Assembly (NCBI GenBank): GCA_002711845.1
Contig: PASF01000002.1
Location: forward strand, 534,224 to 598,223
Direction: 5' to 3'
DNA length: 64,000 nucleotides
Origin: Gammaproteobacteria bacterium
GTDB lineage: Bacteria; Pseudomonadota; Gammaproteobacteria; Pseudomonadales; Pseudohongiellaceae
How positions within the stretch are numbered: the first letter of the stretch is position 1; every line of letters begins with the position of its first letter. Shown here in pieces: positions 36,021-64,000 of the stretch. The notes below the pieces were generated by a model. That model worked only from the letters and a program-made list of their open reading frames with translations. It was not told the origin of the DNA and ran no database searches. A program made the translations under genes and the position numbers.

Positions 36021-36713
36021 TCAACCGCGGCCGGTGCAGGATCCGTCGTTTTGCCGGGCACTGAATTGCAGGTCGGCATAGGCAGCGCTCAGAGTGCTGT
36101 TGCTGTCATCACCGTCGGTCATGATCGCGATGCCGTCCAGGTGATCGATACTCTCGGAAAAGGCTCGCTGCCAGTCCTGCTGGATATCACGACTGTGTGT
36201 CACCCAGCTGCCGGCCTGCTGGTTGCCGCTGTTCAGAGACCACATGAGCGCGTTGTCGCCGGCATAGGCGTTGGGCCAGCGCTGGCCAACGGGCTGCGAT
36301 GCAGACCACACGTAGTTGATGGTTTTGGTACGCCAGAATGCCAGCCCGCCGCGTTTGACCACGTACACCCGGGCGGCAAAATCATCGCCGGCCTTGCTGC
36401 GTTCATCAAGGCTGGCGGGGGCGGTTGCACCGACGCGCCACCGCCAGGTCAGGCACGGTGTGGCCTCCAGATCAATGCGGCCCTGCCGGTAAAAGGCGCT
36501 GGCCTGGCCCTCTGTTTCGGCGGTCACCACGTCAGCCCGGTCTTCGTCAGTCATGACAGTGTAATCGGTGTTGCCGCTGAAACTGCGTTGCTGCCACTCC
36601 GCAAAGTCACTGACATCAAGGGTGTCGGTGTCAAGGTCATTGGCTGCGCCGGCGACCTGGTAACACAGCATGCCAATCATGATGGCTGACAGAACGGGAA
36701 TGTTGTGGGTCAT
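36021..36713 (-). CDS. DUF3047 domain protein, secreted
   Basis: The 230-residue protein has a signal peptide (hydrophobic part about 5-22) and a DUF3047-type body with LTWRWRV, DDFAARVYVV, INYVWSA, and MTDGDDSNSTLSAAYADLQF, which contains the acidic motif near the end. The function of this family is not known; the fold is likely a beta-sandwich. Its ATG overlaps the stop of the upstream REC-EAL-GAF-GGDEF gene by one base (TGATG), so translation is coupled, which links it by position to the c-di-GMP protein. Confidence 0.82.
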   Translation of the reverse strand: MTHNIPVLSAIMIGMLCYQVAGAANDLDTDTLDVSDFAEWQQRSFSGNTDYTVMTDEDRADVVTAETEGQASAFYRQGRIDLEATPCLTWRWRVGATAPASLDERSKAGDDFAARVYVVKRGGLAFWRTKTINYVWSASQPVGQRWPNAYAGDNALMWSLNSGNQQAGSWVTHSRDIQQDWQRAFSESIDHLDGIAIMTDGDDSNSTLSAAYADLQFSARQNDGSCTGRG

Positions 36714-38869: not shown

Positions 38870-38887
38870 CGCTGGAGTCCCATCGTT

Positions 38888-41194: not shown

Positions 41195-41397
41195 TGGGTG
41201 TGGCCTGTAAACCCTGTGGTCAGCTGCAGCCAGCACTGAACCACGCAGATTTGTCGCATTGTAACAACTTAATACCCGAGCGTCTGCGTCAAATGAGCGA
41301 TGATGCAGGATGCCGCCTGCCGAGCTATGATGTGCCACTGAAATCACCACATGGCCTGTCACTGACCATCAAACGGGCTGCAAAAATGGAGAGTTTT

Positions 41398-49512: not shown

Positions 49513-49549
49513 CTGTTGCCGGTCAGTCGAGCTGACTGACCGGCAACAG
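49513..49549. terminator. Perfect 16-bp hairpin between the receptor gene and the NosR-like gene
   Basis: The arms CTGTTGCCGGTCAGTC (49513-49528) and GACTGACCGGCAACAG (49534-49549) are perfect with a five-base loop. The hairpin starts 20 bases after the receptor stop and includes the stop and last eight codons of the NosR-like gene on the other strand. There is no T-tract on either side, so a shared transcription stop or 3'-end protector is inferred. Confidence 0.6.
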
Positions 49550-51481
49550 CGTGACGCCACGAGACGTTAGCGACGCCACGCTGTGGCGACAAACCCCCGC
49601 CTTTTCAATCAGCTTGCTTTCACAAACGTCACAACGCACACATTCCTTGAAGTCAATCTCATGATTGCGGATGGCGCCGGTCGGGCAGGCGTGTTCACAC
49701 ACCTTGCAGGCGGAGCACTGAGGCACGCGTCTGATGCGACGCAGACTCAGCAGCGACAAGACACCCAATGCGGCGCCCAGCGGACAGGCATACCGGCAGT
49801 AGAAGCGTTTGACCACGGTCGATGCCAGCAGAATCAGTATCAGAATTGTCCACAATACAATGGAGGTGCTGTAAAAGAATAGCGTGCCGAAGGGTTCGAA
49901 GTACTGGAAAATGCTGATATCACTTTGCACCAACGCCATGATGACAATCAGCGCCAGGATGGCGTATTTCAGGTAAAGCGCCCGGTCATGAATAAACCCC
50001 GGCACCGTTTGTTGCCAGCGTCTGGGCACGATGCGGGTGAGCATGTCCTGCAGGGCACCAAACGGGCACAGCGACGAGCAGAATACCCGGCCCCAGATCA
50101 GCGTTGTCACCAGCGTAAACACCACGATCATCAGCAGTGGCAGGTCGCTGAGAATCATCGACGGACCCAGCTTGAGGGTGTTGGTAATGTGTGACACCGA
50201 TAGAAAGCCACCGTTGATGAAGCCCAGGTAGATCAGCGTGATACTCAGTGTCAGCCAGCGCAGGCGGGCATCCTTGCGCAGGAATGCTGTCATCACCAGT
50301 ACGAATATCAACAGCAGCGGCAGCACTCTGCTCCAGTTGATGTCAGTCAGCAGTCCTGCGCCTGATGCCCGCATCATCTCATCCATGGCGGGTTCGCCCG
50401 GCGCACGAATCTCCCGATCCAGTGCCATATCCAGGGCAATGCCGGCCAGCTGAATATCAATGGTATAGGGAGGCTCGCCGTTCTGTGGATCATAGGACAC
50501 AGTAAATGGCAGGCCCAGATCCATGGCCGGGTCCAGGATCATGGCCACAGCAAAATTGGCCTGGCCGGCGATTTTGCCCTGGTCGGCGCTGCCGGCATAA
50601 ACGGTTTGACGACGTGGCATGGGATATACAGCGTCGCGCTGCTGGATCGCGAAGCGTTCCTGACGGAAAGGATCTGAGGCATTGCCGCCGATGCCCACCA
50701 GCATCAGTTTGCCGTCATCAAAGCGGCTGCTGGCATCACGCTCGGCGCGCGAATAGGCATCACTGCCAACCAGTATTTCACCCAGGACTTCATTGCCCAT
50801 GTAGGCGAAGGACAGCGTCAACACGCTGTCGTCAGGCAGCCTGCCTTCCAGTACCTGCACCAGGCCTTGTGCTTCCAGCTCTACCCAGGTCAACGGGGCA
50901 AGATGCGCACGGGCATTGCTGGCGCTGTCCGCAGCGGCGGAAAAACCACTGCCGCTGAGATAGGCCTGTGCCACTTTCCGCGCTGCGTTGTAGACGCCAC
51001 GGCTGGTGGCCCAGCTACTGATGGTGGCACGCGATACACCATCGATGTCGCGGCCCACCCGAAACGGATCCGATAACGGTTTGCGTCGGAACTGCTCCTG
51101 GAAAGGGCGAATGGACAGGAAATCGCCACGGCTGGACAGAAAAGATTCGTTGTAGTCCAGTACCTTGATCGCGGTCACGGTGGCGTCCATGTCCAGGCCA
51201 ACCAGGACATCAATGGTGGCGCTGAAACCGACTTCTTCAGGGGGCAGATCCGAGGTCTGAAACACATAACCGGCAACCCTTTCTTCACCGGATTCCGGGT
51301 CTGTGGCAAAGGCTGTGTATACGGGAGGTGTGCCGGATTTGTCGCTGAAACGCTCCGCGGCTGGCATGACCTCTTTCAGTTGGGCTTCACTGACTTGCCG
51401 GCTGAATGGCGTCTGGGCGCCGGCACTGACGGTCATCAGCAGGCACCACATCATGACAACGGCAAGTGCTTGTCGTTTCAT
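49523..51481 (-). CDS. NosR/NirI-like membrane protein with FMN-binding and iron-sulfur domains
   Basis: The 652-residue protein has a signal peptide (about 5-22), a periplasmic FMN-binding domain with DIDGVSRATIS whose Thr153 is the likely flavin-attachment residue, five or six membrane segments (about 380-580), two cytoplasmic CP motifs (CSSLCPFGAL and CRYACPLGA), and a C-terminal ferredoxin-like part with CSACKVCEHACP and a second, unusual set CVRCDVCES with a later VCRH. This is the domain order of NosR, which supplies electrons to nitrous oxide reductase. No nos gene is in the window. It overlaps the upstream cation exchanger gene by four bases (ATGA). Confidence 0.82.
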   Translation of the reverse strand: MKRQALAVVMMWCLLMTVSAGAQTPFSRQVSEAQLKEVMPAAERFSDKSGTPPVYTAFATDPESGEERVAGYVFQTSDLPPEEVGFSATIDVLVGLDMDATVTAIKVLDYNESFLSSRGDFLSIRPFQEQFRRKPLSDPFRVGRDIDGVSRATISSWATSRGVYNAARKVAQAYLSGSGFSAAADSASNARAHLAPLTWVELEAQGLVQVLEGRLPDDSVLTLSFAYMGNEVLGEILVGSDAYSRAERDASSRFDDGKLMLVGIGGNASDPFRQERFAIQQRDAVYPMPRRQTVYAGSADQGKIAGQANFAVAMILDPAMDLGLPFTVSYDPQNGEPPYTIDIQLAGIALDMALDREIRAPGEPAMDEMMRASGAGLLTDINWSRVLPLLLIFVLVMTAFLRKDARLRWLTLSITLIYLGFINGGFLSVSHITNTLKLGPSMILSDLPLLMIVVFTLVTTLIWGRVFCSSLCPFGALQDMLTRIVPRRWQQTVPGFIHDRALYLKYAILALIVIMALVQSDISIFQYFEPFGTLFFYSTSIVLWTILILILLASTVVKRFYCRYACPLGAALGVLSLLSLRRIRRVPQCSACKVCEHACPTGAIRNHEIDFKECVRCDVCESKLIEKAGVCRHSVASLTSRGVTLLPVSQLD

Positions 51482-52464
51482 GCGGCAAGAAACACACTGC
51501 TGATCAGCCAGGCGGTATAGGCTGTATAAGCGCCTATCAGCAGCAGACCTTCGAGACGGTTGATTCGACCCTGACCCCTGAACCCGTAACCGATGACAAA
51601 CAGCGATACCGTCAGGCCTGCCATCACCGCCATGTCCCGGGTCAGCACCTCATGGCCAACGCCCATGGGATGGATGACGCCGGCGATGCCCACCACCGCC
51701 AGGGTGTTGAACAGGTTGGAACCGAGGATATTGCCCAGCGCCATGTCATGTTCGCCTTTGCGTGCCGCGATGACTGACGACGCCAATTCTGGCAGGGAGG
51801 TGCCCACGGCAATAACAGTCAGTCCGATGATGAGGTCGCTGACACCCAGTCCCTGGGCGATGCTAACGGCCCCCCAGACCAGAATACGGGAGCTGACAAT
51901 CAACAGCAGCAGACCGACCAGGGTCCACATCATGGCCCTGCGCAGCGGCATCGTCCTGGTGTCGAGGTCCGCGAGTACCTCCTGCCCCAGCGTATCGTGG
52001 CAGGCTGCCTGCTGATCACGCCGCCCCTGGATGACCGTCCAGATCATGATGATGGCAAAGACTCCCAGCAGCACCAGCGCATCAGCGCGGCTGATGAAGT
52101 CGTCCAGCAGTTGCCAGGCAGCCAGCACTGTTACCAGAGTGAGTATCGGCAAGGTGCGGCGCAGTACCTGCGAGTCCACCAGAATAGGGCTGATCAGGGC
52201 GGTAATACCCAGAATCAGTGCGATATTGGTGATATTGGACCCATAGGCGTTACCCAGCGCGATGCCCGGGTTGCCCTGCCAGGAGGCCAGTGCGGAGACC
52301 ACCATTTCCGGCGCGGAGGTGCCAAAACCGATAATGACCATGCCTATGATCAGGGGCGGGATATTGAAATGTCGGGCGGTGACGGCAGCGCCTTCGACAA
52401 AACGGTCTGCGCTCCAGACGAGAATGACGAGTCCGATGGCAATGGCCAGTGATGCAAGCAACAT
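51478..52464 (-). CDS. Calcium/sodium antiporter family protein (CaxA/YrbG-like)
   Basis: The 328-residue inner-membrane protein belongs to the Ca2+:cation antiporter superfamily. It has two inverted halves of five membrane segments, each with an alpha-repeat: GFGTSAPEMVVS with GNAYGSNITNIALILG, and VGTSLPELASSV with GNILGSNLFNTLAVVG. The acidic residues there bind the cations. A cytoplasmic acidic loop lies between the halves (about 140-170). Its stop overlaps the start of the NosR-like gene (ATGA), so the two are cotranslated. It follows the pentose operon by 79 bases and may be read through from it. Confidence 0.88.
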   Translation of the reverse strand: MLLASLAIAIGLVILVWSADRFVEGAAVTARHFNIPPLIIGMVIIGFGTSAPEMVVSALASWQGNPGIALGNAYGSNITNIALILGITALISPILVDSQVLRRTLPILTLVTVLAAWQLLDDFISRADALVLLGVFAIIMIWTVIQGRRDQQAACHDTLGQEVLADLDTRTMPLRRAMMWTLVGLLLLIVSSRILVWGAVSIAQGLGVSDLIIGLTVIAVGTSLPELASSVIAARKGEHDMALGNILGSNLFNTLAVVGIAGVIHPMGVGHEVLTRDMAVMAGLTVSLFVIGYGFRGQGRINRLEGLLLIGAYTAYTAWLISSVFLAA

Positions 52465-52543: not shown

Positions 52544-52945
52544 TTAGCGGAAAGACCAGTACTTGTGACCGAGAAAACTGGTGAAAACCGGTACCACGAT
52601 ACCAACTGCATGTGCGATTTCAAGCGTGTAGCGGGTGACGCCCAGTGCTGGCAGAACGGCGTAGGCCATGAGCAAACTGACAGCCCAGGTCTGGACAATG
52701 GCCAGCACATTGACCAGCGCGAACAAAAGCATGGAGCGTTGCAGGGTCTGGGTGCTGACTTTGAAGACAAAAATGCGAGCCAGTATGTAAGCGGTCACCA
52801 TGCCGGTAAGGTACGCCAGCACCACCGATGTCGAGAATCCCAGCCAGTTGCTGTAAATAATTCGGGTGCAGAAATTGACGGCCGCGGCGGTGCCGCCGGT
52901 CAGCAGAAAAATCATGAACTGTCGTGACATGAACGGCTCGATCAT
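52544..52945 (-). CDS. GtrA family membrane protein
   Basis: The 133-residue protein has four membrane segments and matches the GtrA family (LTGGTAAAVNF at the first segment and HKYWSFR at the end). GtrA proteins are thought to help move lipid-linked sugars across the inner membrane; in mycobacteria Rv3789 of this family lies next to dprE1 and dprE2. Here it is the last gene of the pentose operon, three bases after the FAD oxidoreductase. It may flip the lipid-phospho-pentose or anchor a partner. Confidence 0.88.
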   Translation of the reverse strand: MIEPFMSRQFMIFLLTGGTAAAVNFCTRIIYSNWLGFSTSVVLAYLTGMVTAYILARIFVFKVSTQTLQRSMLLFALVNVLAIVQTWAVSLLMAYAVLPALGVTRYTLEIAHAVGIVVPVFTSFLGHKYWSFR

Positions 52946-52948
52946 GAA

Positions 52949-54286
52949 TCAGTCTCGTTGGTGGCACGCCTGTCGTGCCAGTTGCCTGCCGAACTCCATA
53001 CTCTCGGAAATGCCCCGGTCACTGGGATAATAGTGTGATGTGTCTGCCACCCACAAGCCCTTGATCGGCAATTCAGCCGGTGGCAGGCGATCGGCAAACC
53101 CAGGCTCGCAGATCGGTTGCGCGTAACGATAACGGCTGGCGCGGATGTCGATAAAGTCGTTATCCTGCAGGCGCGGATTGATTTTCTTGAGATAACTGCG
53201 CACCTTGTTGATAAACGTGGCATCGCTGTCGGCGAATTTAGCGTGCTCCCCGGGCAGATAAAACGGCACATAGACCAGATGATTTTCCATGGGGTGCAGA
53301 TTGCTGTATTCCACCAGGCCAGGAATGTCCATCTCCGGGTCATTGATATTGAGCCAGAACTTGTCGGACACCGGCTGGCGCAGTTTGGCGATGACACAGA
53401 CCACAGCAATATTGCGCAGACTGGCATAGGCTGCGCGCGTTGCGTCGGGCAGGGCGGGTATCAGTTTGGGCACGTAAGGCAGCGGAATGGTGCTGATTAC
53501 CCGCGTGAACGGCTGGAGGTCAGGTGTGACGCCATCAGGTGAGGCGACCTTCACGCCGGCCAGCTGTTGATCGTTGATCACAACTTCTGTCACGGGTGTG
53601 TTCAGGTGGATTTCACCGCCGCCAGCTCTGATGGCAGCGGCCAGCGCCTGCAACAGGGTTTCCGATCCGCCTTCCAGATAACCCAGACATTCGCGCATCA
53701 GGCTGCTGCGGGAGCGACCCACGCGATGAATCCGGCTCCAGATCCAGGCCGCCGACAGGTTGTCCGAATAATGGTAAAACTTGTAGTCAAACAGTGTGCG
53801 CCAGACTGCCTGCCACGCTTCGTCGCCGACCCAGCGGCGAATCCAACTGCGTGCGTCCTGGTGGTCAAGATCCTGCCAGCCGGTGCGTTTGGTTGAAACA
53901 AAGGCATGCAGGCCATAACGGATCTTGGCGGTCAGGCTCAGGCCGCGGAACCGAAGCAGTGCCAGCGGGTTACCCCAGTCCTGAAGTTGATTCTGATACC
54001 AGTAACCCATGCGGGTTTCGGTCCAGCGCATGCGGTCGGCAATGCCGAGATCGTCCAGCATCTGCAGCAAGCCGTGATCCGACAGGCAGTGAAAGTGATA
54101 ATAACGCTCAATCTGCAGTCCATTAAAATCGAAGCTCGCGGTCATGCCGCCCAGGCGGTCATCGGCTTCAAAGACCACGGGATGATAACCTTCCTGCACC
54201 AATTGATAGGCGACTGCCAGACCCATGGGGCCTGCGCCCAGCACGGCAATGCGGTTGTCAGTAGAATTGCTCGGCGGCGACTCCAT
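52949..54286 (-). CDS. FAD-dependent oxidoreductase (amine oxidase/UDP-galactopyranose mutase-like fold)
   Basis: The 445-residue protein has an N-terminal FAD-binding Rossmann motif VLGAGPMGLAVAYQL followed by FEADDRLGGMTASF, and a C-terminal motif in LWVADTSHYYPSDRGISES. It belongs to the NAD(P)-binding-8/amine oxidase group, which includes desaturases, protoporphyrinogen oxidase and UDP-galactopyranose mutase. The reaction is not clear. In polysaccharide and glycolipid clusters such proteins are common, and a role in furanose/pyranose or lipid chemistry is only a guess. It lies two bases after the epimerase gene. Confidence 0.75.
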   Translation of the reverse strand: MESPPSNSTDNRIAVLGAGPMGLAVAYQLVQEGYHPVVFEADDRLGGMTASFDFNGLQIERYYHFHCLSDHGLLQMLDDLGIADRMRWTETRMGYWYQNQLQDWGNPLALLRFRGLSLTAKIRYGLHAFVSTKRTGWQDLDHQDARSWIRRWVGDEAWQAVWRTLFDYKFYHYSDNLSAAWIWSRIHRVGRSRSSLMRECLGYLEGGSETLLQALAAAIRAGGGEIHLNTPVTEVVINDQQLAGVKVASPDGVTPDLQPFTRVISTIPLPYVPKLIPALPDATRAAYASLRNIAVVCVIAKLRQPVSDKFWLNINDPEMDIPGLVEYSNLHPMENHLVYVPFYLPGEHAKFADSDATFINKVRSYLKKINPRLQDNDFIDIRASRYRYAQPICEPGFADRLPPAELPIKGLWVADTSHYYPSDRGISESMEFGRQLARQACHQRD

Positions 54287-54288
54287 GT

Positions 54289-55257
54289 CTAAAACTCCAG
54301 AGCGACATCGCTGTAGCGCGAGTCATTAAACGTTTCGTGAATAGCGGTTTTGAACGGTGTGTAGGGCACGCCAAAAAGCCCCGGCCAGTCTATCACCTCA
54401 AACTCGTCTCTTGCGGTCAGGGCGGCAAGCTGCTGCGTGGTGAACGGGGGATTTTTATCAAACCGGGCCCAGGTCCACAGCAGGGCGTAAAACAGCCAGT
54501 ACGGTATGCGCAGGATCAGTGTGCGCGACCCGATCGCCTGTTTGATATCGCGGATCATGTCGATGTAGTCGATTTTCTCGTGACCGGAAATATTGTAGAT
54601 GCCGTGGCCGCGGCGCGACTCGATGCAGCTGATGATGATCGCGCAGAAGTCGCCCGCGTATAGCGGCTGGCGCATGTAGCGTCCATGGCCGGGGATGGGG
54701 AAAACAGGCACTTTGTTCATGAAGCGCGACAGCCAGCCTAGGTGTTTGCGATCAAACCAGCCAAACATCAGTGTGGGGCGCAGTATCGGGCACTCGATGC
54801 CGCTCTCCAGGACCAGGGTTTCCTGCTCGCGTTTACTGCGTGTGTAAAAATCGTCGGCCACTGATTCGACCACCGACGAGCTGATGTGCACCAGGTAGGG
54901 TTGGGTCGGACATGACTTGATGGTATCCAGTATCAGTCGGGTGGCATCCACATTATTGTGTTGAAAGTCCTGATAGTCGACACCGCCGATCTGCGCCTGC
55001 AACATGACTACCACGTCGGCATCGTCAATGTGACGCTGCCAGTCGCCAGGCTGCGCCAGATCGGCATGTTCGCAGGTCAGGCCGGGCTGGACCTGCTGCA
55101 GCACAGCCAGATTGCTGCGATGTTTATCAAGCACAACAATATTGTGGTAGCCGCGATCGCGCAGCCTGGCAACCAGGTTCTGGCCGACCAGTCCGGCGCC
55201 GCCGGGCAGTACGATCTTGATAGTCTTTTTTACGTCGGATTCTGTCTTGTGATTCAT
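54289..55257 (-). CDS. NAD-dependent epimerase/dehydratase family protein
   Basis: The 322-residue protein is an extended short-chain dehydrogenase. It has the nucleotide-binding motif LPGGAGLVGQNL, the active-site YxxxK in FYTRSKREQE with a Ser-rich HISSSV segment before it, and RPTLMFG. Sugar-nucleotide epimerase or reductase activity is expected but the substrate is not evident. Its ATG overlaps the stop of the upstream membrane protein gene (ATGA), so they are coupled. It sits in the pentose operon. Confidence 0.82.
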   Translation of the reverse strand: MNHKTESDVKKTIKIVLPGGAGLVGQNLVARLRDRGYHNIVVLDKHRSNLAVLQQVQPGLTCEHADLAQPGDWQRHIDDADVVVMLQAQIGGVDYQDFQHNNVDATRLILDTIKSCPTQPYLVHISSSVVESVADDFYTRSKREQETLVLESGIECPILRPTLMFGWFDRKHLGWLSRFMNKVPVFPIPGHGRYMRQPLYAGDFCAIIISCIESRRGHGIYNISGHEKIDYIDMIRDIKQAIGSRTLILRIPYWLFYALLWTWARFDKNPPFTTQQLAALTARDEFEVIDWPGLFGVPYTPFKTAIHETFNDSRYSDVALEF

Positions 55258-56984
55258 GGGTTCTGTCGATGTGTTGGTAGTTCAAAGGCCAGTTTGCACG
55301 CCGGCGAGTCTGCAATCAGCACGACGGTGCCACCGGCCAGCTCGCGGCTCACATAACCACGAAAGCCTGACAGGTAGGCGTTGTCATCAACGGCGTCGGC
55401 GACATCCGGTCTGGGTTGCCCGGTGAGGGCAAAGCCACTGACAATACCTGCGGCATCGGTGATGGTAATCAGCGCCGGCACCTGTTGTTGATGGGCATTA
55501 TACAACCAGCCCTGAATGGCCAGGTGAGCCTGGTCGGGGACGAGCGTCGTGGCCAGGTCAATGTGGCCTCTGCACAATGGCAGGGCGTCGCCGGTGATGA
55601 TCTCGCCAAGCGTGTCCCTGAGGTCGCGCCACGGATGCAAGGCGAACATGCCGAGCTGTCTCGCTTCGGCGACCTCAACGGTGCGCAGCAGGCCGGGCGT
55701 CAGCTCGAAAACATGCTGAATCTGGGTCTCATCCTCGACGCCCAGTGTCAATGCCAGGCCGGCGACCTGGCGATCAAACACCAGTTGATGTTGCGGGGTG
55801 GCTGCCTGCCACTGCAGAGTCAGCATCAGGGCCAGCACTGCCAGGAGGGTGGCGATCGCCGGGCGCGGAAACTGTTGTGCCTGGCGACACAGCCACGGCA
55901 GGAGCAGCACCAGCACACAGGCCCAGGCCATCAGGGCGGGCGTGGTATAGCGGTAACTGATCGCCTGGAGTACGCCAAACGTTACCCGGCCTGTTGCGGT
56001 TCCCAGCGCGGTGCCGGCCAGGTAGACAACGCCAAAAACCAGCGCCAGTGTCAGGGTATTATGCTTGGGTGTTTTGATGCCCCGGTACAGGAATGTGATT
56101 GCAATCGCGGCCATGGCAACGGTCGATGCCATGGCGATCACGCTGCCAGTGGTCCCGCGGCCGAACAGATTGAAGAATGGCGTGCCAAGGTACAGCAACA
56201 CGAACTGCACCACCTGCAACGGTTGCTGCAGCAACGTATCAATGGTGGAGCCATGATGAGGCGGTGACGCATAGTTATTGAAGTACAGACCGAGCGTGAT
56301 AACACCCAGTCCGCACAAAATCAGCAGGCGCCAGATTTGCATGCGGGTGATCAGCGCATAGAGCGCCATCAACGGCAGCGCCAGAATGCCGTTGGCCATG
56401 GTACCCGCAGAGGCGACACCGAACAGGCAGGCAACTGCAAAGGCGGTATGTGCCCGTTCATGGCTGGCAGACTTGTGCAACCAGTAAAACGCGCACAGGG
56501 GCAGCAGCTGCGCCAGGAAGAACTGGCTTTGAAATGCCCAGGCCAGGTTCTCATGCTGCATCCACTGATACAGCCAGGCGATGAGGAAGCAGGTAAAAAA
56601 ATACAGCGTGGCACGTTCAGTTTTTGTGTCCCGCAGGCGTGCATGACTCATGCGCCAGAACAACAGTACCGCCAGGGCGACAAACACATGGTTCATGACC
56701 AGCAGGAAAACGTGCAGGCCACCAAAAAACTCATAGTCCAGCCAGAACAGCAGTCGCGACAACACAATGCGATGTTCATTGTGTTGTGCCCACCATAACC
56801 AGCTGGCGCCATCAGTGATGGCGATATAAAAACCCAGCGTCGCGCCCCACATGTCCCAGAAGGGCACCGGCGTATACATTCGGGCCGTGCCGGTGATGGC
56901 AAGTGCCACAAAGGCTGTCGCTAACAGGGCTGCCAGGGCAGCCGCCAAACGTGTTCGTCCTTGTCCCGGGAGAAGTTCGATCAT
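55254..56984 (-). CDS. Multispanning membrane protein, candidate GT-C glycosyltransferase
   Basis: The 576-residue protein has about 12 hydrophobic segments in the first 430 residues and a soluble C-terminal domain (about 440-576). The first loop after segment 1 has PFWDMWG with an acidic residue and further on HNEHR, as in GT-C transferases that use lipid-phosphate sugars outside the membrane. I do not recognise a named family. Its position between the DprE1/DprE2-like genes and GtrA suggests that it transfers the pentose from lipid to an acceptor. A TfpW-type pilin arabinosyltransferase of Pseudomonas is a conceptual parallel only. Confidence 0.65.
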   Translation of the reverse strand: MIELLPGQGRTRLAAALAALLATAFVALAITGTARMYTPVPFWDMWGATLGFYIAITDGASWLWWAQHNEHRIVLSRLLFWLDYEFFGGLHVFLLVMNHVFVALAVLLFWRMSHARLRDTKTERATLYFFTCFLIAWLYQWMQHENLAWAFQSQFFLAQLLPLCAFYWLHKSASHERAHTAFAVACLFGVASAGTMANGILALPLMALYALITRMQIWRLLILCGLGVITLGLYFNNYASPPHHGSTIDTLLQQPLQVVQFVLLYLGTPFFNLFGRGTTGSVIAMASTVAMAAIAITFLYRGIKTPKHNTLTLALVFGVVYLAGTALGTATGRVTFGVLQAISYRYTTPALMAWACVLVLLLPWLCRQAQQFPRPAIATLLAVLALMLTLQWQAATPQHQLVFDRQVAGLALTLGVEDETQIQHVFELTPGLLRTVEVAEARQLGMFALHPWRDLRDTLGEIITGDALPLCRGHIDLATTLVPDQAHLAIQGWLYNAHQQQVPALITITDAAGIVSGFALTGQPRPDVADAVDDNAYLSGFRGYVSRELAGGTVVLIADSPACKLAFELPTHRQNP

Positions 56985-56996
56985 CCTTGCCAGCCC

Positions 56997-57758
56997 TTAT
57001 ATGTCCATTTTATTAAAGACAAAGCGCGGCAAGTGACGGATGATCATCATGATCAACCACCACTTACCGGGCGCATAGACGACAGGACTGCCTTTGCTCA
57101 CGCCGCGCACAATAGTGGCAGCGACGCTCTCGACGCTGGCCAGGCTGGCGCCATCCTGTTTCAGATGTGCTGTCATGGGCGTATCGGTGGGGCCTGGTTT
57201 GATCAACACAACCTTGACATTGCTGCCCGCCAGCCGGTGCTGAAGTCCTTGTGCGTAGCGGGAGACCAGCCCTTTGGCTGCACCGTAGACATAATTCGAT
57301 TTGCGACCGCGATCCCCGGCAACCGACCCGATAATGGCAATGGTGCCGGTATTGACAGCCTGCATGTGCCCGGCAAAGGCCTCGGCGAACAGCACTGGCG
57401 ACAGTCCGTTGATCTGCATGGCGTCAGCGGCCAGCGTCAGGTCTTGCTGGCACAGTTGCTGATCCGGCAGCGTGCCATGGGCGATCAGCACAATATCAGG
57501 CGTGCCACCTGCCACAATATCTGCCACGGTTTTAGCGATGGCCTCTGCGCGGCTGAAGTCCGCACACAGGATCTGGCTGGTGGCCGCCGGGTTGCGCACG
57601 CTGAGATCGCCGGCAATCGCATTGAGCCGGTTCTGATCCCGGCCCAGCAGGACGAATTGCAGTGACTCGTGGCCAGCCTGCCCAGCCCACTGACGCGCGC
57701 AGTGTTCAGCGATGGCGGAGCTGGCGCCGATGATAACGATGCGTGTACTGTCTGTCAT
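56997..57758 (-). CDS. SDR oxidoreductase, DprE2-like (decaprenylphosphoryl-2-keto-ribose reductase type)
   Basis: The 253-residue protein is a short-chain dehydrogenase with GASSAIAEHCA for NAD(P) binding, AHGTLPD, the catalytic Tyr and Lys in VYGAAKGL, and VVLIKPGPTDTPM. The end HLPRFVFNKMDI closely matches the mycobacterial DprE2 C-terminus, which ends in a similar Pro-Arg ... Phe-x-Lys segment. DprE2 reduces the 2-keto intermediate to decaprenylphosphoryl-arabinose. It lies 27 bases after the DprE1-like gene and 12 bases before the membrane protein gene. Confidence 0.85.
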   Translation of the reverse strand: MTDSTRIVIIGASSAIAEHCARQWAGQAGHESLQFVLLGRDQNRLNAIAGDLSVRNPAATSQILCADFSRAEAIAKTVADIVAGGTPDIVLIAHGTLPDQQLCQQDLTLAADAMQINGLSPVLFAEAFAGHMQAVNTGTIAIIGSVAGDRGRKSNYVYGAAKGLVSRYAQGLQHRLAGSNVKVVLIKPGPTDTPMTAHLKQDGASLASVESVAATIVRGVSKGSPVVYAPGKWWLIMMIIRHLPRFVFNKMDI

Positions 57759-57785
57759 AACCGATACCTTATTTGTTTGACGGGG

Positions 57786-59114
57786 TCAGGAGCCCAGCAG
57801 CCGCCGTGACATGGCTGAGCTGATGCCTGGGTCGCGGAATGCTGAAAATTCTTGCAGACCAGACGCGTACCCCTCAGCGAACATCTGTGCCGGCATGCGG
57901 GCATCCTTGGCAGCATAAAGGCGACCACCAGCCTGCGTCACAATGTCATCCAGCCGGGCAAACAGCCGTTCGGTTCGCGCGCCTTTGTTGGGGAAATCCA
58001 GTGCCAGCGTTGCGCCCGCCAAGGGGAAACTCAACAGGCCGGCAGCGGGGCGCTCGGCAAACGTCTTGAGGACGGCCAGAAACGACCCGTCGCCGGCAGC
58101 AGCAATGGCAGCCAGCATATCAGCGATGGCCGGTCTGGCGGTTTTACGCGGTACCACGCACTGATACTGGAAGAAGCCGCGCCGGCCGTACATGCGATTC
58201 CAGTGTTGAATCTTGTCCAGCGGGTAGAAAAAGCTCTGGTAGTGCGCCGCGCTGATACCGGCCTTACGCGCATTCATGTGGTAGTAGGCCGCATTGAAGG
58301 GGCGCAGGCTGAGTTTGTTGACCAGGGACAGGGGCGGCGTTACCGGCATATTGAGCGCTGACGGCGTGCGCGTTCCGGGTGCCGTCAGCTGTTTTTCTGT
58401 CAGCTCGGCCTCACTGGTGTGATTGGCGCGCAGGAAGATGCCGCGTGTCTGCGGTCCGGTCAGGCAGTCAATCCACGATACGGTATGTTCCCAATCGGTT
58501 TCTGAGCGATCAGCAAGGGAAAAAAAATCGTCCAGACTGGTAAATGGCACGGTATCGGTCAAAAGCCAGGGGCTGTCGATGCGCCTTAGCCGGATTTGTG
58601 CAGTACTGATGACGCCGGTCAGGCCCAGACCGCCTATGGTGGCTTTGAACAGATCGGCATGGTGGTCACGATTGCAGTCCAGGGTGCTGCCGTCGGTTCG
58701 CGCAATCCTGAAACTGGTGACATGCTCCCCAAACGTCCCCATGACATGGTGGTTCTTGCCATGGACATCGTTGGCTATTGCGCCGCCGACAGTGATCAAT
58801 TGCGTGCCGGGTGTCACAGGAAGCATCCAGCCGCGGGGCACCAGGCAATCCTGAATTTCCTTCAGTGTCACGCCTGCTTCACAGCTCAGAATGCCGGTGC
58901 CCTGGTCAAAGCTGATAAACCGGTTCATGCGCCGGGTCTGCCACAAGGTGCCTGCCGGGTTCAGACAGACATCGCCGTAGCTGCGGCCCATGCCGTAGCT
59001 GATGCCGGGCAATCCGTGCTGAATCGACTGCACCAGCGTCCGGTGATCTGCGAGCGGCACAACCTCATGTGGGTGTTCAGCAAGGCGGCCCCAGGACGCA
59101 ATTTTCATAAACAT
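57786..59114 (-). CDS. FAD-dependent oxidase, DprE1-like (decaprenylphosphoryl-ribose 2'-oxidase type)
   Basis: The 442-residue protein has an FAD_binding_4 domain with GMGRSYGD at 41-48, PGTQLITVGGAIANDVHGKNHH (about 102-123) and GTFGEHV. The C-terminal substrate domain has Tyr297 in FFYPLD, YGRRGFFQYQCVVP with Gln316 and Gln318, and Lys403 in AAKDAR. These match the active-site Tyr, Gln and Lys of mycobacterial DprE1. The Cys that benzothiazinone drugs attack in M. tuberculosis (ICVDFP) is Ala371 here (LALDFP). It should oxidise the 2'-OH of a lipid-phospho-ribose. It is 16 bases after the UbiA gene. Confidence 0.88.
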   Translation of the reverse strand: MFMKIASWGRLAEHPHEVVPLADHRTLVQSIQHGLPGISYGMGRSYGDVCLNPAGTLWQTRRMNRFISFDQGTGILSCEAGVTLKEIQDCLVPRGWMLPVTPGTQLITVGGAIANDVHGKNHHVMGTFGEHVTSFRIARTDGSTLDCNRDHHADLFKATIGGLGLTGVISTAQIRLRRIDSPWLLTDTVPFTSLDDFFSLADRSETDWEHTVSWIDCLTGPQTRGIFLRANHTSEAELTEKQLTAPGTRTPSALNMPVTPPLSLVNKLSLRPFNAAYYHMNARKAGISAAHYQSFFYPLDKIQHWNRMYGRRGFFQYQCVVPRKTARPAIADMLAAIAAAGDGSFLAVLKTFAERPAAGLLSFPLAGATLALDFPNKGARTERLFARLDDIVTQAGGRLYAAKDARMPAQMFAEGYASGLQEFSAFRDPGISSAMSRRLLGS

Positions 59115-59130
59115 GCACCGTTGTCCATGG

Positions 59131-60552
59131 TCAGGCCACCGATCCGATCACCAGCACCACCGCGAACCCAAGCCCGGACAGCAGGCTGGCCTTGTCCTTG
59201 ACCGCGAACACCAGCGGGTCGTCGTGCATATTGCCACGACTGGCCTGCATCCACATCCAGCTGACCCAGAACAGCATGAATGGAATGGCAGCCCACACCA
59301 GGGTGGGATTACGATAAAGCTCCAATACTTCCTCGCTGTTCAGGTACAGCGCCAGCACCATCACCGCCACATAACCGGATGTGACCCCAAGGGTCTGAAT
59401 CAGGGGGGCGTCACTGGTGAAATAGCCACGACCATGCGCTTTGACGGCGCCGCTTTCTGCCTGCAAGGCCAATTCGGCGTAGCGTTTGACGAAGGCCAGC
59501 GACAGGAACAGAAAAACCGATTCCGCCAGCAGCCAGAAGGACAGGTCCAGGCTGGCAGCGGCAGTGCCGGCGACAATGCGCAGCGTGTACAGCATGGCCA
59601 GCGTCAGACAGTCAACCAGCATCAGTCTTTTGAGCCCAAAGGAATAGGCGCAGGTCAGGGCCAGATAAACCAGCAGCCATTGCAGGAAGGCCACATTGAC
59701 CCAGAGTGCCAGGGCGATGCCGGATGCCAGTAAAAATGGCATCAACACCGCGCCCTGCCATGCCGGAATCAGGCCTGAAGCGAACGGACGACTGCGTTTC
59801 CGGGGGTGCAGGCGGTCACTTTCCAGATCCAGCAGGTCATTGGTGATATAGACTGCTGATGCACACAAACTGAAGGCGCAAAAAGCCAGTACCAGGGATA
59901 ACCAGGTACCCAGGTCACTGAATTGATGAGCCGCGATCAGGGGAATAAACAACAACAGGTTCTTCAGCCACTGGTGTGCGCGAATCACTCGCAACCAGGT
60001 CAGCATGCCGCTGGCGCGCAGTGGAAACTCATGCTCGATATCGCACACGGCGCGCGCCCGGTCACTCAGCCCGCTGGCCCCATTGACCACGACTGCGCGG
60101 TGCGCCACGCTCCATACCGCCAGATCCTTGTCACAGTTGCCCACGTAGACAAATCCGGTCGCGGCAAAGCGTGCGGTCAACGCCTCCGCTTTACGCGGGC
60201 CTGAGAGATTGGTCTCGCCATCGCTGGCCATGACCTCATCAAACAGTTGCAGGTGATCGGCGATGGATTGGGCAATCGACTGGTGCGACGCTGTGCAAAG
60301 TATGAGTCTGCGCCCGGCATCCTTCTGCTGGCGCAGCCAGGTCAGCAATGCTTCGTTATAGGGCAGGCTGGCGGGATCAAACCGGGAACGATCAGCCAGG
60401 CGCTGCTTGAGAACAGCTTTGCCGCGGGCCAGCCAGAGCGGGATGAACAGTGTCGCCCACGGCCGCTCACGCAGCACCTTGAGTGCTGATTCATGAAGCA
60501 TGTCCGTGTGGATCAGCGTACCGTCCAGGTCGACTACCAGCGGTTGATTCAA
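59131..60552 (-). CDS. HAD phosphatase-UbiA prenyltransferase fusion
   Basis: The 473-residue protein joins an N-terminal HAD domain (about 1-175; DLDGTL with Asp8 and Asp10, LCTASH, Lys121, GNCDKD) to a UbiA prenyltransferase with eight or nine membrane segments (about 185-473; NDLLDLESD at 238-246, then GLKRLMLVD). In mycobacteria the UbiA protein Rv3806c makes decaprenylphosphoryl-5-phosphoribose and a separate phosphatase removes the 5-phosphate; this fusion could do both. The start is TTG with a strong GGGAGG site; the ATG eight bases earlier is in another frame and gives only two codons. It leads the operon. Confidence 0.85.
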   Translation of the reverse strand: MNQPLVVDLDGTLIHTDMLHESALKVLRERPWATLFIPLWLARGKAVLKQRLADRSRFDPASLPYNEALLTWLRQQKDAGRRLILCTASHQSIAQSIADHLQLFDEVMASDGETNLSGPRKAEALTARFAATGFVYVGNCDKDLAVWSVAHRAVVVNGASGLSDRARAVCDIEHEFPLRASGMLTWLRVIRAHQWLKNLLLFIPLIAAHQFSDLGTWLSLVLAFCAFSLCASAVYITNDLLDLESDRLHPRKRSRPFASGLIPAWQGAVLMPFLLASGIALALWVNVAFLQWLLVYLALTCAYSFGLKRLMLVDCLTLAMLYTLRIVAGTAAASLDLSFWLLAESVFLFLSLAFVKRYAELALQAESGAVKAHGRGYFTSDAPLIQTLGVTSGYVAVMVLALYLNSEEVLELYRNPTLVWAAIPFMLFWVSWMWMQASRGNMHDDPLVFAVKDKASLLSGLGFAVVLVIGSVA

Positions 60553-60632: not shown

Positions 60633-62924
60633 TCATCCACCGGTATCGCCGTCATCCAGCACTTTACGGACTTTGGCGGCCAGTTCCTGGCGACGATAGG
60701 GTTTGTTCAGCAGGTGCACGCCCCGATCGAGGCGCCCGTGATGGACGATGGCATTCTCGGTGTAACCTGAGGTAAACAGCACCTTGATGCCGGGGCGCAA
60801 TGTTAAAGCCAGGTCGGCGAGCTGGCGCCCGTTCATGGTGCCGGGCATGACGATGTCAGTGAACAGCAGGTCAATGTTGCTCAGCTGCTTCAGCATGTCC
60901 TGCGCCTCATCGGCGTTGCTCGCCGCGTGGACCCGGTAACCGAGCGCCTGCAGTTGTCCGGTCACATGTTCGCGTACCAGGGGATCATCCTCGACCACCA
61001 GGATACTCTCCTGTCCGCCTTCGATGGCCAGTGCCAGGTGTCCGTCATAAACGCCAGAGCCTGCCGAGACGGCGCGTGGCAGGTACAGCTTGACCGTCGT
61101 ACCTTCATTGATTTCGGAATAGATTTTGACATGCCCGCCGCTTTGTTTGGCGAAACCAAACACCATGCTTAAGCCAAGACCGCTGCCTTTGCCAATCTGC
61201 TTGGTAGTAAAAAACGGTTCAAAGGCTTTGCTGACAACATCCGGCGTCATGCCACTGCCGGAATCCGATACCGATACCATGACATATTGTCCGGCCACGA
61301 CTTCGTCGTGGCCGTCTGCATAGGTCTGATCCAGCAGCGTGTTGCATGTCTCTATGGTCAGTTTGCCGCCGTCGGGCATGGCGTCACGGGCGTTGATGGC
61401 CAGGTTGAGCAGGGCGCCCTCAAGTTGCCCCGGGTCCACCTCGGACAACCACAAGCCCCCCGCGTAGACGTTTTCGATATCGATGCTTTCCGGCAGGGTG
61501 CGGCGCAGCAGACTGTCCATACTCTGGATCAGTTTGTTGATATTGACGTTTTGCGGGTCCAGCGGCTGTCGCCGCGAAAACGCCAGCAGTCGACTGGTCA
61601 GTTCGGCACCGCGCTCGGCAGCAGTGGCGGTCATCTCCGCCAGGATCCGCAATTGCTGCTGGTCAGTAAGCTGCTCGGTGAGCAGTTCGGCATTGCCGAG
61701 AATAACGGTCAGCAGATTGTTGAAGTCGTGCGCAACGCCGCCGGTGAGCTGGCCCACTGCTTCCAGCTTCTGCGCCTGGCGCAGCCGCTCATCCATTTCC
61801 TTGCGATCAGTGATATCCATCATGCTGCCGACCATGCGAACGGCAAGGCCGTCGGTGTTGCGGATGACAAAGCCGCGATCAACGACAGTTCGCACAGATC
61901 CGTCGGCATGCATGAAACGGTATTGGTCCTGCCAGCCCGTAGCGGTACCTTTAATGACGGTGGTGATGCCATTCATTACCCGGGCCCGGTCATGCTCGTG
62001 GATGTTCTTACTCCAGGCGCCTGAACCCTGGTCGCTGGTGATCATGTCATGGCCATAGACGCTGAGCATGTTGTCGTTCCACCAGATCGTGTCATGCAGC
62101 AGATCCCAGTCCCAGATGACGTCACTGGTCGCTCTGGCGATGAGGTTGAATCGTTCGTTACTGATGCGCAGGGTTTCTTCGTTGCTCACGCGCTCGGTGA
62201 CATCGCGAAAATAAACCGCGAGCCCCTCCGGTGTCGGATAGGCGCTGACCTCAAACCACGCGCTCAAGGGTTCCGGATAGAACTCGGTAAAGCGCACGGT
62301 GCGCTGTTCGCTGACCGCCTGCTCGTAGCAGCGTCGGAAATCCGAATCGCTCGCGGCCGGGAATTCGTCCCAGATGCACTTGCCCAGCAGGTCATCCCGG
62401 CGCCGTGCCAGCAGAATTTCCGCCTGCGTATTCATGAAACCGAAGCACCAGTCATGGTCAATCAGGAAAAAGCCATCACTGATGTTTTCCATGGTCTGCT
62501 GCAATTGGCGAGACAATAGCTCGGTGCGCTCGCGTGCGCCGATCAGCTCCGAAATATCCTGAAATGCGCCATGGACAGCCACTATCTTGCCGGTATCATC
62601 CTTGACTGCCTCACCGATGGTGCGTGCCCATAACGTCCGGCCTTTGCCAGTAATAAACTGGACAACTTCGTCAAAGGCAGTGCCGTGCTGCGCGCATTGC
62701 GCAAAAACCGCCTGGATTCGGTTGCGGTGCTCTGGCGGCGCATAGAATGCAATGGCTTCGTCTACCGTGGGCTGAAAATCCGGTGCCACCTCGTGAATGA
62801 TCCGGGTCTCTGCTGACCAGTGCACCTGGTGGTTGATCAAATCGACCTTCCACCCCCCAAGCTTTGCCGCAGAACCGGCAATTCTCAGCAGGTCGCTCAT
62901 CTCATCCAGGTTCGTGCGATTCAT
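60633..62924 (-). CDS. Soluble PAS hybrid sensor histidine kinase
   Basis: From the ATG at 62924 the protein has 763 residues and no clear membrane segment. Three PAS/PAC domains (about 20-140, 150-255 and 265-390) are followed by HisKA with the phospho-acceptor His in [13 protein letters not shown], HATPase_c with DSGSGM and [14 protein letters not shown], and a C-terminal REC domain with LVVEDDP, Asp in [10 protein letters not shown], and Lys in LLNKPYR. It is a close paralogue of the hybrid kinase at 38888-41194, which is membrane-anchored and has two PAS domains. The ATG comes one base after the stop of the REC-EAL gene, so the two are coupled. Confidence 0.9.
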
Positions 62925-62925
62925 A

Positions 62926-64000
62926 TCAGTTACCCCAACCGCTGTCCCGGTCGCGGAGCCACTGCAGCGCCGCCTCGGGCGACATCGGGCGTCCGATAAA
63001 AAATCCCTGTGCGTGGGTGCAGCCCAGATCCCGCAGGAATTGCAATGACCAGGCGTCTTCAACGCCCTCGGCAGTGACATTCAGGTCGAGCGCCTTGGCC
63101 AGGCTGATCACCGCAGCGGCGATTTTCTGAGCCTCGATAGAAGTCGATGCCGACATGACAAACATCTTGTCGATTTTCATTTCCGAAAATGGCAGGCGTG
63201 CCAGCTGCACCAGAGACGAATAACCGACACCAAAGTCGTCGATGGACAAATGGAAACCCTTGATGCGGAACTGGGTCAGGTACTCGAGCGCGGCAACCGG
63301 ATTTTCCATGCTGCTGGTTTCGGTTATCTCCAGCGTCACCTGCGCAGGCGCAACGCCATAGCGGGCGCAGGCTTGCTGTATCCAGGCCGGGAACTGGGCA
63401 TCGGCCAGCACTATCGCCGACATGTTGATTGACAGCATCAGGTCGGAGTTCAGAAAGTTGTCGGCAAACCAGGCCAGGCTTAGATCAAACACCTGTCTTG
63501 TCAATTCGGCGATGTGACCGTGCTGCTCGGCCAGCGCGATGAACTGATCCGGGAAAATCATGCCACGCTCGGGGTGCTGCCAGCGCACCAGACTTTCAAA
63601 CCCCACCGCCTTCTCGGTGCCACAGGCTATCTTGGGTTGAAAGTGCACGCACAGCTGCTTCATGGTCAGCGCTGTTGCCAGCATGTCCGCGCTGACCGGT
63701 GCCATATGGCCGACGCCAGCGAACGCCCGTTTCTGGTCGGCGGGTTCCTGGTGCAACAGGCTGCGCAGCTTGGCCGGCGTGAAGGGTTTGGGAAGCACGC
63801 CAGAGACACGCAGGCCATTTTCTTCAGCTGCCCGGCTGGCAGCTTCCAGCACCCGTCCGCCCAGGCCGCTGGTGACAATGACAATGCCCTGGTGGCCCGA
63901 AAGAGCGAGTCGGTGCAGGGTTTCCACGCCATCCACATCCGGCATGACCAGGTCGACAATCAAGTGTGATGGCTGCCAGTCAGTCACCAGCCGGAAGAAT
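62926..64000 (-). CDS. REC-EAL response regulator, cyclic-di-GMP phosphodiesterase (5' end beyond the window)
   Basis: The right edge of the window cuts this gene; at least 357 codons are visible. The visible part begins inside a REC domain (phospho-Asp in LIVDLVMPDVDG, Lys in GVLPKPF) and continues with an EAL domain: FESLVRW (ESL in place of EAL), SINMSA, EITETSS, DDFGVGYSS, MKIDK, AEGVED and HAQGFFIGRPM. All metal-binding acids are present, so it should degrade c-di-GMP. It closely resembles the REC-EAL half of the protein at 36713-38869 but has no GAF or GGDEF part. The kinase downstream is its likely partner. Confidence 0.88.
   Translation of the reverse strand, partial: FFRLVTDWQPSHLIVDLVMPDVDGVETLHRLALSGHQGIVIVTSGLGGRVLEAASRAAEENGLRVSGVLPKPFTPAKLRSLLHQEPADQKRAFAGVGHMAPVSADMLATALTMKQLCVHFQPKIACGTEKAVGFESLVRWQHPERGMIFPDQFIALAEQHGHIAELTRQVFDLSLAWFADNFLNSDLMLSINMSAIVLADAQFPAWIQQACARYGVAPAQVTLEITETSSMENPVAALEYLTQFRIKGFHLSIDDFGVGYSSLVQLARLPFSEMKIDKMFVMSASTSIEAQKIAAAVISLAKALDLNVTAEGVEDAWSLQFLRDLGCTHAQGFFIGRPMSPEAALQWLRDRDSGWGN

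What the first reader, a model, noticed from the sequence alone, without database searches (positions are those of the whole stretch)
52544..60552. Seven-gene operon resembling mycobacterial lipid-phospho-arabinose synthesis in a Gram-negative
Seen: seven minus-strand genes with gaps of 27 bases or less, or ATGA overlaps, encode a HAD-UbiA fusion, DprE1-like oxidase, DprE2-like reductase, 12-segment membrane protein, epimerase, FAD oxidoreductase and GtrA protein. Known: in mycobacteria Rv3806c, DprE1, DprE2 and the GtrA protein Rv3789 make and use decaprenylphosphoryl-arabinose. Inferred: this operon makes a polyprenyl-phospho-pentose (perhaps D-arabinofuranose) and attaches it to an envelope acceptor, such as pilin, a glycan or a protein. 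Two further enzymes, the FAD oxidoreductase and the epimerase, are not part of the known pathway and could give a different sugar.
Basis: partly seen in the sequence, partly recalled or inferred. Interest (0 to 1): 0.85.

Follow-up and report, generated by a model that had tools for sequence, protein, structure and literature searches.

The report
Operon for an arabinose-derived lipid-linked sugar
A seven-gene operon in a Pseudohongiella bacterium looks like a kit that builds a rare five-carbon sugar on a membrane lipid, much as tuberculosis bacteria do for arabinose, then probably alters it once more with two extra enzymes and attaches it to a still unknown surface molecule.

Summary
In detail: seven tightly packed minus-strand genes (HAD-UbiA, DprE1-like, DprE2-like, GT-C, SDR epimerase, FAD oxidoreductase, GtrA). 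The basic idea is already published: Kelly et al. 2024 (PMC11127046) describe HAD-UbiA/flippase/GT-C pentofuranose systems in Gram-negatives, with DprE1/E2 where the sugar is Araf. What my searches did not find in print is the extra pair, epimerase plus FAD enzyme. In a 274-genome class sample, the epimerase and close FAD relatives occur in the same 8 genomes, all among the 53 with DprE1. Plasmids show the same nesting (7, 7, 64 records). In a phylum sample all 7 other epimerase genomes have both. Their distances correlate at 0.93, like DprE1 with DprE2 (0.94), but 0.43-0.51 with DprE1. The gene order is mostly kept across alpha-, beta- and gammaproteobacteria, while the membrane gene between DprE2 and epimerase varies; the window's folds as a GT-C glycosyltransferase. 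Best reading: PRPP to polyprenyl-P-ribofuranose to -arabinofuranose, then a second two-enzyme change to an unidentified pentose, flipped by GtrA and transferred by a GT-C. Boldest reading: lyxofuranose, which that paper says is absent from solved structures. No product was measured.

The parts
59131..60552 (-). HAD phosphatase domain fused to UbiA prenyltransferase; predicted polyprenyl-phosphate phosphoribose synthase plus 5'-phosphatase
   Evidence: PRK08238 660 bits; UbiA part matches decaprenyl-phosphate phosphoribosyltransferase 8j8j at 4e-31, with NDxxDxxxD and HPxKRxRPxxxG stretches shared in the printed alignment
57786..59114 (-). DprE1-like FAD oxidase; predicted to oxidise C2 of the lipid-linked ribofuranose
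   Evidence: DprE1 model 1.2e-106 and PDB DprE1 9.6e-70, with GRSYGD and HGKNHH stretches shared
56997..57758 (-). DprE2-like SDR reductase; predicted to reduce the 2-keto intermediate to arabinofuranose
   Evidence: PDB DprE2 2e-27 over residues 8-252, with the YxxxK stretch and C-terminal end shared
55254..56984 (-). GT-C fold glycosyltransferase with C-terminal beta-sandwich (about 467-572); predicted to move the flipped sugar to an unknown acceptor
54289..55257 (-). Extended SDR epimerase/reductase ('epi'), half of the add-on pair
   Evidence: GxAGLVG and YxxxK motifs invariant in 10 diverse members; co-occurs with the FAD gene and DprE1
52949..54286 (-). FAD oxidoreductase of the PRK07233 family ('FAD'), other half of the add-on pair
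52544..52945 (-). GtrA-family small membrane protein; predicted flippase of the lipid-linked sugar
   Evidence: PF04138 GtrA_DPMS_TM 47.6 bits

Best explanation
The operon encodes a full donor-to-acceptor pathway for a modified pentofuranose. [quoted passage not shown] (2) The DprE1-like oxidase and DprE2-like reductase invert C2, giving polyprenyl-P-D-arabinofuranose. (3) The FAD oxidoreductase and the SDR epimerase act as a second oxidoreductase pair that changes the arabinofuranosyl donor again, most likely at another stereocentre. (4) GtrA flips the finished donor to the periplasm. (5) The GT-C enzyme, perhaps helped by its C-terminal beta-sandwich, moves the sugar to a surface acceptor that differs between lineages. 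Steps 1, 2, 4 and 5 are inferred from homology or fold. Step 3 is inferred from co-occurrence, co-variation and the analogy of the two enzyme pairs. No step has been measured.
For: Family and structure matches for steps 1, 2, 4 and 5. The published Citrobacter prototype has the same HAD-UbiA logic and a GT-C with a C-terminal carbohydrate-binding domain; the paper reports DprE1/E2 homologues in Araf-containing cases (PMC11127046, sections 9, 11 and 12 part 1). For step 3: in one 274-genome class sample the epimerase (52% identity or more) and FAD (44% or more) occur in the same 8 genomes, all among the 53 with DprE1. Hypergeometric values without the window's genome, which treat genomes as independent, are 5e-14 for epi/FAD and 6e-6 for epi within DprE1. 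Of 72,556 plasmid records, epi (E 1e-30) and FAD (E 1e-60) hit the same 7, all present among the 64 DprE1 records. In a 349-genome phylum sample (a few genomes shared with the class sample), the 7 other epi genomes all have DprE1 and FAD. Six epi genomes without a DprE1 hit beside epi all have one elsewhere, one of them partial. Distance correlations over 42 loci: UbiA/E1/E2 0.90-0.94, epi/FAD 0.93, between the groups 0.41-0.67. A large polytopic membrane gene lies between E2 and epi in 33 of 61 loci and belongs to several families, while the donor genes stay. Simpler clusters, UbiA-GtrA and UbiA-GtrA-E1-E2, exist, so epi/FAD reads as a third tier.
Confidence: 0.6

Rival explanations
1. Plain D-arabinofuranose cassette whose FAD enzyme (and epimerase) modify the lipid carrier, for example by desaturating or isomerising the polyprenyl chain, rather than the sugar.
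For: Nearest folds of the FAD model are phytoene desaturase and protoporphyrinogen oxidase; three distant PRK07233 relatives sit in other settings without a DprE1 hit in the stretch read, and their genomes are not among the DprE1 genomes.
Against: A general lipid modifier would not be expected to be confined to DprE1 genomes; close FAD relatives were found only there in the samples examined, although UbiA clusters without DprE1 in the stretch read exist.
Confidence: 0.15
2. The epimerase alone makes the second change, as ORF13 alone makes xylofuranose in Citrobacter youngae O2, and the FAD enzyme has a separate role.
For: Nucleotide-binding and YxxxK motifs are invariant in 10 diverse members; ORF13 precedent (PMC11127046 section 11).
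Against: FAD accompanies epi in 78 of 80 loci, the other two being cut at contig ends, and varies with it at r 0.93, so a separate dispensable role is less likely.
Confidence: 0.12
3. The FAD enzyme is a ring mutase (UDP-galactopyranose mutase-like) that turns the lipid-linked furanose into a pyranose.
Confidence: 0.05
4. The epi/FAD pair acts on the acceptor or a second sugar in the same glycan, not on the DprE1/E2 product.
For: Several cassettes lie among other glycan genes.
Against: The pair persists beside different membrane-gene families in the slot and in the Pseudohongiella operon, where Pfam scans of 26 window proteins recognised no other glycan locus.
Confidence: 0.08

Closest known systems
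Three-component pentofuranose systems of Citrobacter youngae O1/O2 (Kelly et al. 2024, PMC11127046)
   Same: HAD (PRP) fused to UbiA (PPPRS), a flippase, a GT-C with a C-terminal beta-rich domain, and epimerising enzymes that set the sugar
   Different: Here the predicted flippase is GtrA, not MATE; DprE1/E2 and an additional FAD/SDR pair occur together; no O-antigen locus was recognised beside it
Mycobacterial decaprenyl-P-arabinose pathway (Rv3806c, Rv3807c, DprE1, DprE2, Rv3789, Emb/Aft)
   Same: UbiA synthase, DprE1-like, DprE2-like, small GtrA/SMR-like membrane protein, GT-C transferase
   Different: A fused HAD domain takes the place of Rv3807c; extra epi and FAD; carrier and acceptor unknown
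Pseudomonas type IV pilin arabinosylation (TfpW, group IV strains)
   Same: Proposed to use a polyprenyl-P-Araf donor made by a UbiA synthase (PMC11127046 passages; TfpW as a GT-C enzyme is recalled)
   Different: No pilin gene recognised among the window proteins scanned; no sequence comparison with TfpW was made

Membership tests
Three-component pentofuranose system (PMC11127046) | Polyprenyl phosphoribose synthase (UbiA) with phosphoribose phosphatase (HAD) | tested here: met
   By sequence: PRK08238 660 bits over residues 3-471; mycobacterial-type synthase 4e-31. Activity not tested
Three-component pentofuranose system (PMC11127046) | Candidate flippase gene encoded with it | tested here: met
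   A GtrA-family gene ends the operon; the prototype uses MATE, and flipping was not tested
Three-component pentofuranose system (PMC11127046) | GT-C fold glycosyltransferase | tested here: met
Three-component pentofuranose system (PMC11127046) | Polyprenyl-P-pentofuranose formed and transferred | not testable with these tools
   Needs biochemistry
GT136 (ORF12 family) | Sequence relationship to ORF12 | not tested
   ORF12 sequence not at hand; a HAD-UbiA search of 392 genomes of the Pantoea genome's family found only that genome and one other, so no comparator. The Asp near helix 1 and the RY pair look similar in place to D31 and R349-Y350 as described in the paper
DprE1 | DprE1 equivalog model at or above its cut-off | tested here: not met
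   357.6 bits against cut-off 500; still by far the best family, next 54.9
DprE1 | Shared stretches GRSYGD, HGKNHH and a late AKD motif | tested here: met
   Printed alignment with 4aut; their roles in FAD and substrate binding are recalled
DprE2 | DprE2 equivalog model at or above its cut-off | tested here: not met
   151.8 bits against 250; PRK07102 scores higher at 251
DprE2 | DprE2 is the closest solved structure by sequence | tested here: met
   21gq chain C 2e-27; next 1.4e-11
ORF13-type xylofuranose epimerase | SDR with nucleotide-binding motif and YxxxK | tested here: met
   GxAGLVG and YxxxK invariant in 10 members; the paper's motif is TGXXGXXG, and no ORF13 sequence was at hand for direct comparison
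UDP-galactopyranose mutase (for the FAD protein) | UGM as nearest fold | tested here: inconclusive
Mycobacterial DPA pathway | Rv3807c-type phosphatase and decaprenyl carrier | not tested
   No Rv3807c search was made; a fused HAD domain is present instead

The most novel reading that the evidence does not exclude
[quoted passage not shown] If so, lyxofuranosyl glycans would be scattered over alpha-, beta- and gammaproteobacteria and simply not yet noticed.
Probability: 0.2. Interest if true: 0.85.

Novelty: new variant of a known kind. Interest (0 to 1): 0.62.

Why it matters
It would extend a recently described way of adding pentofuranoses outside the cytoplasm by a third tier. The gene sets read as a graded line: UbiA-GtrA (ribose), plus DprE1/E2 (arabinose), plus epi/FAD (a further sugar). 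The cassette is widespread but patchy (7 of 273 other genomes of the class sample; 7 of 348 of the phylum sample; at least 520 relatives of the epimerase in the species collection). It predicts a sugar-lipid intermediate and a surface modification in many genera, where the sugar can be found by standard lipid and NMR analysis. It would also propose a role for an FAD family that NCBIfam lists only as a hypothetical protein (PRK07233).

Tried and rejected
Tried without result: viral-contig scan with the GT-C protein (4 pattern matches, no relative); epimerase in phages (none); a hunt for the Citrobacter ORF12/ORF13 comparator in 392 genomes of the Pantoea genome's family (2 HAD-UbiA matches, the Pantoea itself and one other); HAD-UbiA in phages (one partial match in an unannotated record); promoter and terminator scan (4 promoter-like sites against 3.7 expected, 4 terminator-like against 7.6). 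Sequence search of the PDB with the GT-C alignment gave no match at E 1. Six large membrane proteins from other loci (slot or nearby) gave no Pfam family. My ten paper searches found no paper on the epi/FAD add-on, judged from listings, abstract starts and, for three papers, passages or sections. They cover open-licence PubMed Central only, were mostly capped lists, and did not use the name PRK07233.

Considered and rejected: chance array (order conserved); a phage operon (no phage record holds the epimerase; 7 of 72,556 plasmid records do); a pilin-linked operon (no pilin recognised among 26 different window proteins scanned with Pfam; the window has 82 ORFs of 150 aa or more, many of them spurious); the FAD enzyme as a plain UDP-galactopyranose mutase.

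Results against a simple picture: order variants exist. L040 and L041 have UbiA-epi-FAD-GtrA-E1-E2; L038 has epi with E1 and FAD on other contigs of the genome; L036 and L039 match only the UbiA half of the fusion; L035 has no GtrA hit. L044 has the membrane gene between epi and FAD, and L115 has UbiA after GtrA.

Limits of the counts: of the 8 loci among 80 without an E1 hit, five were checked genome-wide; L055, L067 and L074, on contigs under 4 kb, were not. The DprE1 tree (quick method, 28 of 62 inner branches drawn open for low support) used 65 of 108 rows after removing near-copies with the same label (over 72% identical). Its epi-negative rows come only from the 29 other of 53 DprE1 genomes for which one search returned loci. 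The label needs 9 changes, of which starred branches force 4, and it is more clustered than any of 500 shuffles (mean 16.1). The correlation test used 42 loci with all six genes cleanly called, some of them near-copies. The neighbour-gene clusters and the slot table use crude ORF calls, some visibly merged or over-extended. The phylum sample has no DprE1 count over all 349 genomes, so no base rate there. Four of the seven plasmid cassettes were viewed gene by gene.
Full report
WHAT IS THERE. Reading from 60552 down they are: HAD-UbiA fusion, DprE1-like oxidase (E1), DprE2-like reductase (E2), polytopic membrane protein, SDR epimerase (epi), FAD oxidoreductase (FAD) and GtrA protein. Pfam and NCBIfam support these names. 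PDB sequence matches agree: decaprenyl-phosphate phosphoribosyltransferase for UbiA (4e-31), DprE1 for the oxidase (9.6e-70) and DprE2 for the reductase (2e-27, next best 1.4e-11; alignment). The oxidase and reductase score below NCBIfam's strict equivalog cut-offs, and the reductase scores best against the SDR family PRK07102. They are therefore DprE1/DprE2-like, not certified orthologues.

CONSERVATION. The genus is Pseudohongiella by record titles of near relatives. In the first relatives search 12 of 36 other genomes have the membrane protein, all in the same genus, which has 14 other genomes there; one of the 12 matches carries an in-frame TGA. Eleven of these 12 have all seven genes in the same order; the twelfth has six before its contig ends. 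Identities to the window run 71-90% for epi, 62-91% for FAD, 61-92% for UbiA, 57-79% for E1, 58-80% for E2, 59-91% for GtrA and 43-76% for the membrane protein. An epi-profile scan of public genomes returned at least 520 relatives. In the best 80 loci, by my tblastn thresholds, FAD is found in 78 (the two without it end within 70 nt of epi), GtrA in 73, E1 in 72, E2 in 72, UbiA in 70 and the window-type GT-C in 23. By title they are mostly beta- and gammaproteobacteria (Pseudomonas, Massilia, Variovorax, Janthinobacterium, Methylobacter, Pantoea and others). Four annotated plasmids, of Burkholderia, Agrobacterium, Rhizobium and a rhodobacterial strain, carry UbiA-E1-E2-epi-FAD-GtrA in exactly this order. 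Order variants exist elsewhere (see Tried and rejected). Of 61 loci with both E2 and epi called, 25 have them within 400 nt, and 33 have one or two large polytopic membrane ORFs between them, which fall into several families not joined by my clustering. So the donor-making genes are mostly constant and the predicted transferase is exchanged; only the window-type protein was folded.

THE EXTRA PAIR. Three samples were examined. (a) Class sample, 274 genomes including the window's: epi (52% identity or more) in 8, close FAD (44% or more) in the same 8, three further FAD matches at 28-30% in genomes without E1, E1 in 53 including all 8. (b) Plasmids, 72,556 records: epi in 7, FAD in the same 7, E1 in 64 including those 7, UbiA in 101. 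(c) Phylum sample, 349 genomes including the window's and a few others of the class sample: epi in 8; the 7 others all have E1 and FAD. Six epi genomes without a nearby E1 hit all have E1 elsewhere, one of them a partial match; five of these were tested for FAD and have it, the sixth has it. So in these samples close relatives of epi and FAD were found only together and only where DprE1 is present, while 45 of 53 DprE1 genomes lack them. Distances over 42 loci show two tight groups, UbiA/E1/E2 (r 0.90-0.94) and epi/FAD (r 0.93), with looser ties between them (0.41-0.67); GtrA follows neither closely (0.33-0.42). The looser ties tested also beat nearly all shuffles, as expected of linked genes. 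On the E1 tree the epi-positive label needs 9 changes, 4 of them forced by well-supported branches. One striking case is L035: E1 37% but epi 65% and FAD 66% identical to the window. The pair therefore behaves as one module that has joined, or left, different DprE1 lineages more than once.

TIERS. Related plasmid clusters are simpler: UbiA-GtrA plus a glycosyltransferase in Leisingera, and UbiA-GtrA-E1-E2 with large hypothetical proteins nearby in Ruegeria, Cereibacter (one more gene inserted) and Rhizobium leguminosarum. I read this as a graded line: ribofuranose, arabinofuranose, then an arabinofuranose-derived sugar. Only the stretches shown were read.

WHICH SUGAR. [quoted passage not shown] A cassette with DprE1/E2 plus a second pair is what a lyxofuranose pathway would look like, but inversion at C4 (an L-sugar), another modification, or a change of the lipid are not excluded. 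My paper search for lyxofuranose with polyprenyl gave no paper, and a broader one showed nothing on a bacterial lyxofuranosyl glycan among the 12 listed of 79, judged from titles and abstract starts.

VERDICT. The new element, as far as my searches reach, is the epi/FAD add-on, its nesting within DprE1 carriers and its distribution. I score it as a new variant of a known kind.

Noticed in passing
window 49523-51481 and 51478-52464, minus strand: An FMN-binding/4Fe-4S membrane protein and a sodium/calcium exchanger follow the operon; similar proteins recur in 7 loci each among those clustered (clusters 14 and 15).
   Followed up: no
window 60633-63987 and 36713-41362: Two similar sets, each a PAS hybrid histidine kinase with receiver beside a receiver-EAL protein, look like a duplicated signalling pair.
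   Followed up: no
window 33422-35356, plus strand: A 644-aa ORF with no Pfam family at E 0.001.
   Followed up: no
window 57786-59114: At the place aligned with the cysteine of mycobacterial DprE1 that I recall as the benzothiazinone target, this oxidase has alanine (alignment).
   Followed up: no
L082 and L103 (Pseudomonas sp. Irchel s3h14): Two copies of the cassette lie about 13 kb apart on one contig.
   Followed up: no
L162 (Burkholderia stagnalis plasmid): The six-gene cassette lies a few kilobases from isonitrile synthase genes, so it may also serve a secondary metabolite.
   Followed up: no
L060 and L069: MAG contigs labelled Anaerolineales and Nitrospira carry proteobacterial-looking cassette genes (76% and 73% epi identity): misbinning or transfer.
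   Followed up: no
L188 (Rhizobium leguminosarum plasmid) and other Rhizobium plasmids: Many Rhizobium plasmids carry UbiA and DprE1 genes (36 and 34 records), but only 4 Rhizobium records have epi; in L188 the order is UbiA-GtrA-E1-E2. Plain lipid-linked arabinose is likely there.
   Followed up: partly
L057 11622-12626 and other loci of cluster 10 (10 loci): A membrane protein with the lysylphosphatidylglycerol synthase TM region (Pfam tested for L057 only) follows GtrA in some cassettes; role unknown.
   Followed up: no
L172, L173, L174: Distant PRK07233 relatives (26-30% identity) lie beside a family-2 glycosyltransferase (L172, Pfam), a large membrane gene (L173) or what looks by eye like an epimerase (L174), so the FAD family may serve other lipid-linked sugars too.
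   Followed up: partly
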